Positions 19,550 through 22,500 of a stretch of 64,000 nt of DNA are shown piece by piece. The DNA comes from Powellomyces hirtus. Its lineage: Eukaryota > Chytridiomycota > Chytridiomycetes > Spizellomycetales > Powellomycetaceae. Within the stretch, counting starts at the first letter, position 1, and each line of letters starts with the position of its first letter. Below the pieces are notes generated by a model. The model saw only the letters and a program-made list of their open reading frames with translations. It did no database searches and was not told where the DNA came from. The stretch lies in assembly GCA_025526995.1 (NCBI GenBank), contig JAHLKG010000004.1, positions 62,001 to 126,000 of the forward strand. The letters are read 5' to 3'. The translations under genes were made by a program, and so were the position numbers.

Positions 19550-22500
19550 TTATGGCGGCGGTGCCGGTCTCGCCACACTTCCAAACTCGCGATCAAACGC
19601 GGTATACATGTCCAAGTCGCCGCGGGACACGCTGGCGCGGACTTGGGTCAAGGCGTCCATAAAGTCGTCGAGGACCACGGGTCGGATGTCGGATACTGTG
19701 CACCAAACAACCAACACCAACACCAACAACATACACACACAGACGGCACAAATTAAGTGACGTAATTACATGTAGCATTTACGTTGGGGGAGTGTACATT
19801 GTGACACGTACCATTCACATTTTGGATATCGTCGATGGCGCGGATGGGGCCTGTGTGTGGGGGCGGACGCACCCCAGTAAGCCGCACAGACTATATCGAA
19901 ACAAGACGTAATGCTCCATAAACGGAATACACTCACCTAACGAAGCCTCGCGCACGAGTCCATCCATATCCGATCCACTGTATCCTACCCACCGACACCA
20001 AAACAGCAGCAGGTGAGGAGCGTAAAACCCACAAAGGGGAGAAACGCAGTGGTGTCGGGGGAAAGAGAACCCGACAAGTCAGGTAGTTACCCTCCGTCTT
20101 GCCCACAATAACATCTAGATCATGATCCGTGAGCGAGTGGGCGAGGGACGCCATTCGGTTTCGGATCATTTGCGTGCGGGCTTGGGCCTCGGGTAGGGGC
20201 ACGTACAACTTTTTGCGGAAGCGGCGCCGGACCGCCTCGTCAATTTCCTGCGGTCTGGTGCACAAAAACAATACGCTGTCAGTCCTCGTGCGCCGCCCGT
20301 TCTCTTGAACCGCACTCGACATTCTTACCTGTTAGTCGCGCCTTGGATGACATGTGAAGGGTTTAGTTGGATCATTCAACTTGCTGCCAGCCGTGCATAG
20401 AACGACACACTCGCCATGGGTGCCAACTCACCAATCATGAGGATCCGATCCTGGGCATCCGTCGCACAGCCATCAAACTGGACCTTGAACAAGCAGCGAA
20501 ACATACAACCATAGAGTCAATCATCGTTGAACCCTAGTTGAATTGATCCATGAAAGTACCAGAAACTCAGTCTTGATGCGCCGGGTAGCATCATGTTCCC
20601 CATCGTTCCGTTTCGATAGGAGAGAGTCAATCTCATCGACAAAGATGACGCTGGGCTGATACACGCGCGCCACTGCAAAGAGGGCACGGACCAGTTTCTC
20701 GCCGTCGCTAAGCACGAACCCCGAGAACGTCAGGTTGAGTCGAGTGTGTCGCGCAACCTAGCCGAACGTTAGGGCTTACCCGATCTAAACATGCGATACA
20801 GAAACAGTGTCAATGACATATCAAGGTGAGGTTTGCTTGACGGGTTGACGTCAAAAACACATACCCATTTTGAGGTCAGCGACGAGGAGCTGATACTAAA
20901 GAAGCTCGCTTTGCACTGACTCGCGATGCATTTACCAATAAGGGTCTTGCCTACCAACACGCTTCCATGTTGAGCACCAGGTACAGGAATCCACCAAAAT
21001 CGAACGAGTACAACCAGTATTCACATACCTGTGCCTATCGTGAAATGAAAGACATGATGGGCGTGATGAGTCAAGGAAGGATCGCAAAAAACAAATCGCG
21101 TCGCCAAACCTGGTGGCCCATACAAAAGTACGCCTACAGAGAGAGAGAGAGAGATGGCATGAGATGAGACAACACTACTACGTTTCACCTCGTGCACCAT
21201 CATACTCTGGGCCAAACACCTCACCTTTAGCCGGCGCTCGTAACCCCTGAAAAATATCTGGACGCAGCATGGGAAACACGACCGTTTCCTTTATGGTTGC
21301 TTTCGCGAGCGCCAGACCCACGATATCGTCCCAGGTGACTTGCGCCACATTATCGAGCATTTCGTTCATGATCGTCTCAATCATTTGCGGGGGGATGTTC
21401 TTTAAGCGTTCATCGGTGACTTTGCTTTGGCCGCCGACAGATTTGCCCGTGCTGCCCCCCACAAACCCAGAAACACCTAGATCAGCAACCTAACCGGTGA
21501 GGATGACCAATGCCAGGCGAATGATAGCTACCGTATCTGATCACAAGCGTCTCGAGTGTTCAGAGGTGAGACAAACTTTTTCCCACGGGCACCGTTTATT
21601 GGGGCATACTCTGCGCCGTCGCTGTCGTCGTCGTCATCTTCATTGGATCGCTTTTCCTTTGCATTAGATCGCTGGGAGTTCCAAAGATCAGCTTTCAGTT
21701 CTCATTGGGATGACTCCAACCGCGGGCAGACACGCAGCTGCAATACATACCATCAATTCGTTTCCAGTCATAAACGGACTTGGATTGGCCTCCACGTTGC
21801 GCTTCTGGCGGCGCTGCGGCCGTTCGTTTTCCTCCTCACCATCCGTCTCCACCGCTCGTCTCTAAAATTTCACAAAGTATGGATTCAGCGCTCAGTGTAG
21901 TTCTGTTGCTCCCACTGTGGCACACGTCATACCTTAGGCTTCTCTGCAGCCGGAGTCGCTCGCCCACCCCGTTTACAATTGGTGCATGACGCAATGCTGG
22001 TAACCGTCGGTTGCCGCGGTGGGTACTTTGCAAGCGTTTGGGTAGCCTTTTCACATGTCACTTTTTTCAGGACAGCAGCCATGGGAGCCATAGGAGAAGT
22101 CACGGGAGCTACTGGGGCCGAGCGGGGAACAAGTATTGGATCTAGGGGCTTGTATCTCGGGTTAGCGGCCGGTGCAGGCTTACTTCCCACAAGGCCATGG
22201 CCATCTTTCGGTTTGTAAAATCGGGCGAGCTTGTAGTTTTCGGGAAGTGGTCGCTGGGGCAGATTGAGCTTGCTAGGGATCTACATACAAGCGGAAACAT
22301 GCCCGCGGATGAGAACACAGCCATCTGAAAGACAGCAAACAAGCTGCGCCATATCTATTGCAACAACTCAAGCTTCTACCTTGAGTTCTCCCGTGATGGG
22401 TGCTCCGTCGCAAAATAGCACATGCTTTCCACCAGCAGCTGGAGCACCTCCCCTCCGCTGGTCCAAAATCGCATTCACACGGGCCGCAATCGAGTTCTCG

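What the first reader, a model, noticed from the sequence alone, without database searches (positions are those of the whole stretch)
21029..21034. 6-nt microexon encodes the Thr-Gly of the Walker A motif in FIGNL1
On the minus strand, CGATAG|GCACAG|GTATGT leaves a 6-nt exon between introns of 75 and 78 nt. With flanking exons it completes GPPG-T-G-KT; without it the frame stays open but reads GPPGKT, which cannot form a P-loop. Inclusion or skipping of six bases could therefore switch the ATPase between active and dead forms without a frameshift. Very few 6-nt exons are known in fungi.
Basis: partly seen in the sequence, partly recalled or inferred. Interest (0 to 1): 0.82.

Follow-up and report, generated by a model that had tools for sequence, protein, structure and literature searches.

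The report
Six-base exon in chytrid ATPase gene
A chytrid DNA-repair ATPase gene carries a six-base exon that codes for two residues of its ATP-binding loop, and because gene-finding software missed it and two other tiny exons, the public protein record lacks parts an ATPase needs; nothing here shows that the cell uses it as a switch.

Summary
GCACAG (21034..21029, minus strand) lies between introns of 75 and 78 nt. It is the only solution with at most two GT/GC-AG introns that restores GPPGTGKT. A spliced aligner finds it with 4 of 4 references, one from an animal. Shuffled introns reproduce it in 5 of 20,000 trials. No RNA data were available.

Contig lengths identify the genome as a Powellomyces hirtus assembly. 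Its deposited protein, P0241, differs from the spliced model only at the three places that hold these exons. Indel anomalies at the same motifs occur in 11 of 215 listed homologues, all from fungi.

Best reading: constitutive coding microexons in an intron-dense gene, spliced by intron definition and missed by gene finders. The on/off switch is untested. It stays possible because the exon itself ends in AG: using that AG as acceptor would recreate a donor, and a second splice would drop Thr-Gly. New member of a known kind.

The parts
21029..21034 (-). Exon 9, 6 nt, GCACAG: with one base from exon 8 and two from exon 10 it completes Gly-Thr-Gly; Thr-Gly of Walker A GPPGTGKT
21035..21109 (-). 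Intron 8, 75 nt, GTTTGG...CGATAG; weak donor (2.6 bits against 4.8 to 12.2 in 24 control donors); TTGAC 40 nt before its 3' end; the final AG is its only AG
20951..21028 (-). Intron 9, 78 nt, GTATGT...TGGTAG; strong donor (9.1 bits); no NTRAY branch-site match 12 to 60 nt from its end
21110..21133 (-). Exon 8, 24 nt, codes for VLLYGPP with split codons
20780..20784 (-). Exon 11, 5 nt, ATCGG: Ile and most of Gly in SKWIGDGEK (pore loop 1 by recalled AAA anatomy)
20329..20341 (-). Exon 14, 13 nt, GCGCGACTAACAG: GATNR (sensor 1 by recalled AAA anatomy)
20865..20950 (-). Exon 10, 86 nt, starts with the GKT of Walker A
20785..20864 (-). Intron 10, 80 nt
20708..20779 (-). Intron 11, 72 nt
19550..23104 (-). 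FIGNL1 gene, 18 coding exons, 709 aa (revised model, intron 6 at 21531..21452)
   Evidence: family

Best explanation
FIGNL1 of this Powellomyces hirtus genome is cut into 18 exons by short introns. Three internal exons are 15 nt or less (6, 5 and 13 nt), and each codes for part of a conserved motif of the ATPase domain. The 6-nt exon at 21034..21029 supplies Thr-Gly of Walker A and is included constitutively. The likely mechanism is intron definition: the spliceosome pairs the two ends of each short intron rather than the two ends of an exon, so a 6-nt exon need not bind factors at both ends at once, and the two introns can be removed one after the other. Shown here: the sequence, the unique splice solution, recovery with four references, and the broken deposited models. 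Inferred: that the exon is spliced in living cells, that inclusion is constitutive, and the order of removal.
For: Unique splice solution for GPPGTGKT. Same exons from 4 of 4 references without being told where they are. Destroying the acceptor before the 6-nt exon in a copy lowers the alignment score by 14.5 with 3 of 3 references; 20.5 to 22.5 for the 5-nt exon and 21 for the 13-nt exon. Chance: 5 of 20,000, 18 of 20,000 and 0 of 10,000 shuffles. The deposited protein for this contig, P0241, differs from the spliced model in 24 of 316 aligned columns, all in three clusters that hold the 6-, 5- and 13-nt exons; the inserted letters are translations of our introns. P0003 from strain CBS 809.83 is 438 of 466 and 197 of 202 identical on either side but garbled between, again with intron 9 translated. 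The 5- and 13-nt exons cannot be skipped in frame, so skipping is unlikely to be their function.
Against: No RNA. Intron 8 has a weak donor (2.6 bits, below all 24 control donors), so splicing there may be inefficient; introns 3 and 11 of the gene also score below that control minimum (2.7 and 3.7). Intron 9 has no NTRAY branch-site match, against 20 of 24 control introns with one. Tiny exons are not general in the control genes: 0 of 20 internal exons of four chaperonin genes are under 53 nt, so this gene is unusual and the reason is unknown. Relatives' DNA could not be read, so conservation of the exon itself is untested.
Confidence: 0.87

Rival explanations
1. Regulated on/off switch: the 6-nt exon is included or left out according to condition, making active or ATPase-dead FIGNL1 without a frameshift.
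For: The exon is a multiple of three and skipping gives in-frame GPPGKT. Weak donor of intron 8. Precedent: a 20-nt microexon in Trichoderma Xlr2 is differentially expressed with glucose (PMC11121469, abstract, passages and one section).
Against: No evidence for skipping; neighbouring 5- and 13-nt exons are not multiples of three; a weak donor of intron 8 is used both for inclusion and for skipping, so it does not favour skipping.
Confidence: 0.05
2. Gene or allele is dead, or the assembly is wrong here: Walker A is really lost, as in the deposited models.
For: Deposited proteins P0241 and P0003 lack Walker A.
Against: The deposited letters are translated introns; a canonical splice solution restores the whole domain; 709 codons are open; a second strain is 197 of 202 identical in the C-terminal part and shows the same exon 8 and intron 9.
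Confidence: 0.04
3. Thr-Gly is supplied in another way: a non-canonical intron, intron 8 retention, or another junction.
For: Intron 8 is 75 nt with no stop in frame, so its retention would insert 25 residues (sequence). One single-intron solution (21024..20962) makes a chance G....GKT string.
Against: That solution inserts intron letters and none but the 6-nt exon gives GPPGTGKT; only GT/GC-AG introns of 30 nt or more were enumerated.
Confidence: 0.04

Closest known systems
9-nt mini-exon of plant acid invertases and fructan exohydrolases
   Same: In-frame tiny exon, codon-split, that codes for the core of a catalytic motif (DPN of NDPNG); missing from rice and maize annotations (PMC8831610 section 8; PMC4477480 passages). 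Loss of that mini-exon gives a putative non-functional enzyme.
   Different: Plant gene, 9 nt, backed by RNA; other enzyme family.
Plant microexons of 15 nt or less and the 1-nt exon of Arabidopsis APC11
   Same: Constitutive tiny coding exons missed by gene annotation (PMC8831610 abstract and passages; PMC4674806 passages, which also names a 6-nt constitutive exon of chicken cTNT).
   Different: Plants and animals, RNA-supported.
Microexons of Phanerochaete chrysosporium P450 genes
   Same: Fungal, shortest exon given as 6 bp or 2 aa (PMC1184071 passages).
   Different: Basidiomycete, P450 genes; whether the 6-bp exon codes for a catalytic motif was not looked up.
Xlr2 microexon of Trichoderma virens
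   Same: Fungal microexon inside a functional domain, missing from most gene models (PMC11121469).
   Different: 20 nt, not a multiple of three, RNA-seq shows dependence on glucose.

Membership tests
FIGNL1 (fidgetin-like 1, AAA ATPase) | Best structural match is FIGNL1, above spastin and p97 | tested here: met
   8r64_B 404.9 bits, 3d8b_A 404.1 bits; best spastin 334.2 bits
FIGNL1 (fidgetin-like 1, AAA ATPase) | AAA domain, AAA lid and Vps4_C domain | tested here: met
   PF00004, PF17862, PF09336 above cut-off in the spliced model
FIGNL1 (fidgetin-like 1, AAA ATPase) | Intact Walker A in the product | tested here: met
   Only when the 6-nt exon is included
FIGNL1 (fidgetin-like 1, AAA ATPase) | RAD51 binding and filament disassembly | not testable with these tools
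   Role known from animals and plants (PMC10411901 passages; others recalled)
Constitutive coding microexon | Exon of 15 nt or less between canonical introns that completes a conserved frame | tested here: met
Constitutive coding microexon | Present in mature mRNA at high inclusion | not testable with these tools
   No RNA data
Constitutive coding microexon | Conserved in relatives | tested here: inconclusive
   Strain CBS 809.83 protein shows exon 8 and then intron 9 translated, so an acceptor sits at the same place; in other genera only annotation anomalies were seen; no relative's DNA could be read
Switch-like (regulated) microexon | Condition-dependent inclusion | not testable with these tools
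   No RNA data
Switch-like (regulated) microexon | Length a multiple of three | tested here: met
   6 nt; but the 5- and 13-nt exons of the same gene are not multiples of three

The most novel reading that the evidence does not exclude
A tandem-acceptor ratchet. The 6-nt exon both follows an AG and ends in AG, right before GTATGT. If the spliceosome takes the second AG, exon 8 is joined to GTATGT and a fresh strong donor arises at CCAG|GTATGT; a second splice to exon 10 then removes Thr-Gly. One choice between two AGs six bases apart, of nearly equal hexamer score (CGATAG 3.4, GCACAG 3.3 by the control matrix, the latter scored as the same hexamer at intron 17), would set the ratio of active to ATPase-dead FIGNL1 without exon skipping in the usual sense. 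The gene model of strain CBS 809.83 in fact uses the second AG, though as a prediction.
Probability: 0.05. Interest if true: 0.8.

Novelty: new member of a known kind. Interest (0 to 1): 0.42.

Why it matters
The public records for this gene describe a FIGNL1 without Walker A or sensor 1, so a reader would think that the chytrid enzyme is dead; the genome says otherwise. The same motifs show insertions or losses in 11 of 215 listed homologues, all from fungi, so domain losses inferred from chytrid gene models should be checked for microexons. Three exons of 5, 6 and 13 nt in one gene also make a compact natural test of how short an exon a fungal spliceosome handles, and of whether a 6-nt tandem-acceptor exon leaks.

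Tried and rejected
Single-intron solutions for the P-loop: none gives GPPGTGKT. An early junction for intron 6, identical to that of P0003, was replaced after comparison with Geranomyces proteins; the donor score of -1.5 belongs to the withdrawn junction. A 4-nt exon suspected in a proteasome ATPase locus (L008) from translations turned out to be a misreading: the sequence gives an ordinary 20-nt exon. A genome-wide pattern search for the same microexon gave 13 places; in the 10 fetched as loci only FIGNL1 has GPPG upstream, 3 were not examined. An ab initio genome survey of microexons was dropped for lack of power (reasoned, not run). Control genes: four chaperonin genes with orthologous references gave 20 internal exons, none under 53 nt; four more loci had only paralogous references and were left out of the count, although the aligner gave a 15-nt exon in L070 with both references and a 2-nt exon in L068 with one of two; the terminal 13-nt exon of L064 and an 8-nt first exon of L065 with one reference were not counted as internal. 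Branch-site scan: no match in intron 9. Literature: microexon with chytrid gave 3 papers, none on chytrid microexons by title and abstract start (listing only); microexon with P-loop gave 7, none on this subject by listing; one search listed 8 of 20 and one search listed 20 of 51.

Full report
What is there. The window lies in a 29.26-Mb assembly of 60 contigs (C4:62001-126000). Three contig lengths (1,713,957, 2,117,414 and 1,202,767) equal those printed for Powellomyces hirtus proteins, so this is a P. hirtus assembly, a saprotrophic chytrid of the order Spizellomycetales (life style recalled). On the minus strand 23104..19550 codes for a 709-aa protein in 18 exons. Its ATPase part matches human FIGNL1 structures best (8r64_B 404.9 bits, best spastin 334.2 bits) and carries PF00004, PF17862 and PF09336.

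The finding. Exon 9 is GCACAG, 21034..21029, between introns of 75 and 78 nt. All introns around it split codons after the first base, so the exon adds exactly Thr-Gly between GPPG and KT. An exhaustive enumeration of one- and two-intron solutions found no other that gives GPPGTGKT. In dinucleotide shuffles of the interval, with the outer sites fixed, 5 of 20,000 contain such an exon. A spliced aligner that allows any GT-AG intron of 40 to 300 nt returned the same exon with 4 of 4 references, the most distant an acorn worm. Destroying its acceptor in a copy lowers the score by 14.5 with 3 of 3 references.

The same gene has a 5-nt exon, ATCGG at 20784..20780, that gives Ile-Gly in SKWIGDGEK, and a 13-nt exon at 20341..20329 that gives GATNR. 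By recalled AAA anatomy these are pore loop 1 and sensor 1. Shuffles reproduce them in 18 of 20,000 and 0 of 10,000. Of 16 internal exons 3 are 15 nt or less and 7 are under 53 nt, against 0 of 20 internal exons under 53 nt in four chaperonin genes of the same genome. The comparison is small, the four genes were chosen because references were at hand, and four further loci with only paralogous references were left out. Microexons were findable only in the conserved ATPase part, so their placing in conserved motifs is partly ascertainment.

The deposited proteins. P0241, a 316-aa partial P. hirtus protein on a contig of 1,713,957 bases, differs from the spliced model in 24 of 316 aligned columns, all in three clusters: GEVFGPDVLVGKT for GVLLYGPPGTGKT, SKWVCVFDVNPDGEK for SKWIGDGEK, MIGDVLFLCTRPQE for MIGATNRPQE. 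Four stretches of the replacing letters that were looked up are read from window introns 7, 9, 10 and 14 (EVFGP, VLVGKT, KWVCVFDVNP, VLFLCTRPQE). P0003 from strain CBS 809.83 is 438 of 466 identical before exon 8 and 197 of 202 after exon 11; between them it reads exon 8 in another frame and then twenty residues identical to the translation of our intron 9, which means that its gene model joined 21110 to 21028 in our coordinates, taking the AG at the end of the 6-nt exon as acceptor. Neither record is a transcript.

Other fungi. Among 215 listed homologues (P0001 to P0120 and P0241 to P0335, the best-scoring rows of two capped lists), 11 have an insertion or loss at one of the three motifs: P0003, P0010, P0016, P0028, P0048, P0059, P0073, P0241, P0285, P0312 and P0313. 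By their names all are from fungi. P0028 of Quaeritorhiza reads PKG-KTLIG and lacks ten residues, the sum of our 24- and 6-nt exons; P0010 of Thoreauomyces reads on after SKY and resumes at DGEK; P0059 and P0073 of Chytriomyces hyalinus lack ATNRPH. Five further proteins deviate by substitution only (P0001, P0002, P0009, P0020, P0104). These patterns suggest introns at the same places in other genera, but no relative's DNA could be read. Within this genome three other AAA loci have an intron in or next to the P-loop: L007 at PGTG|KT in the same phase, L008 with a 20-nt exon before PGTGKT, L018 at YG|PPGTGKS.

Mechanism. The introns are short (68 to 116 nt), which suits intron definition, in which the spliceosome pairs the two ends of an intron; this makes tiny exons tolerable (recalled; the fission-yeast paper on this, PMC86406, was seen only in a reference list and is not held). 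I infer that the 6-nt exon is included constitutively, because loss of Thr-Gly would kill the ATPase and because the 5- and 13-nt exons show that this gene needs faithful inclusion anyway. Against easy splicing: the donor of intron 8, GTTTGG, scores 2.6 bits, below all 24 control donors (4.8 to 12.2), and intron 9 lacks an NTRAY branch-site match that 20 of 24 controls have. The acceptor of intron 8 is in the control range (3.4; controls 2.6 to 7.0).

The switch. The most novel reading left open is a ratchet: the AG that ends the exon can serve as acceptor, which rebuilds a donor at CCAG|GTATGT, and a second splice then removes Thr-Gly. I give regulated use 5%.

Known relatives. The 9-nt plant mini-exon that codes for the catalytic DPN of invertases is the closest in kind (PMC8831610 section 8; PMC4477480 passages). 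Plants have thousands of microexons of 15 nt or less, mostly unannotated (PMC8831610 abstract). A 6-nt constitutive exon is known in chicken cTNT and a 1-nt exon in Arabidopsis (PMC4674806 passages). In fungi a 6-bp exon is given for P450 genes (PMC1184071 passages) and a 20-nt microexon of Xlr2 depends on glucose (PMC11121469). This is therefore a new member of a known kind, with the added point that the public record of the gene is wrong because of it.

Noticed in passing
window 38572..38693 (+): U5 spliceosomal RNA, 69.5 bits (Rfam gathering 40), the only Rfam match of the window.
   Followed up: no
window 19550..23104 (-): The FIGNL1 gene is not among the 22 matches of a six-frame search of the genome for PF00004, probably because its exons are so short; only 19 of 123 first-look candidates were scored there.
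   Followed up: no
L003 and L015: Two loci on contigs C2 and C25 give the same 38 residues around an AAA P-loop: a recent duplicate or uncollapsed haplotype.
   Followed up: no
L008 1396..1415 (locus + strand): A proteasome-type AAA gene has a 20-nt exon just before its P-loop.
   Followed up: partly
L070: A 15-nt exon near the start of a chaperonin gene with both references, which were paralogues; may be a further microexon or a false call.
   Followed up: no
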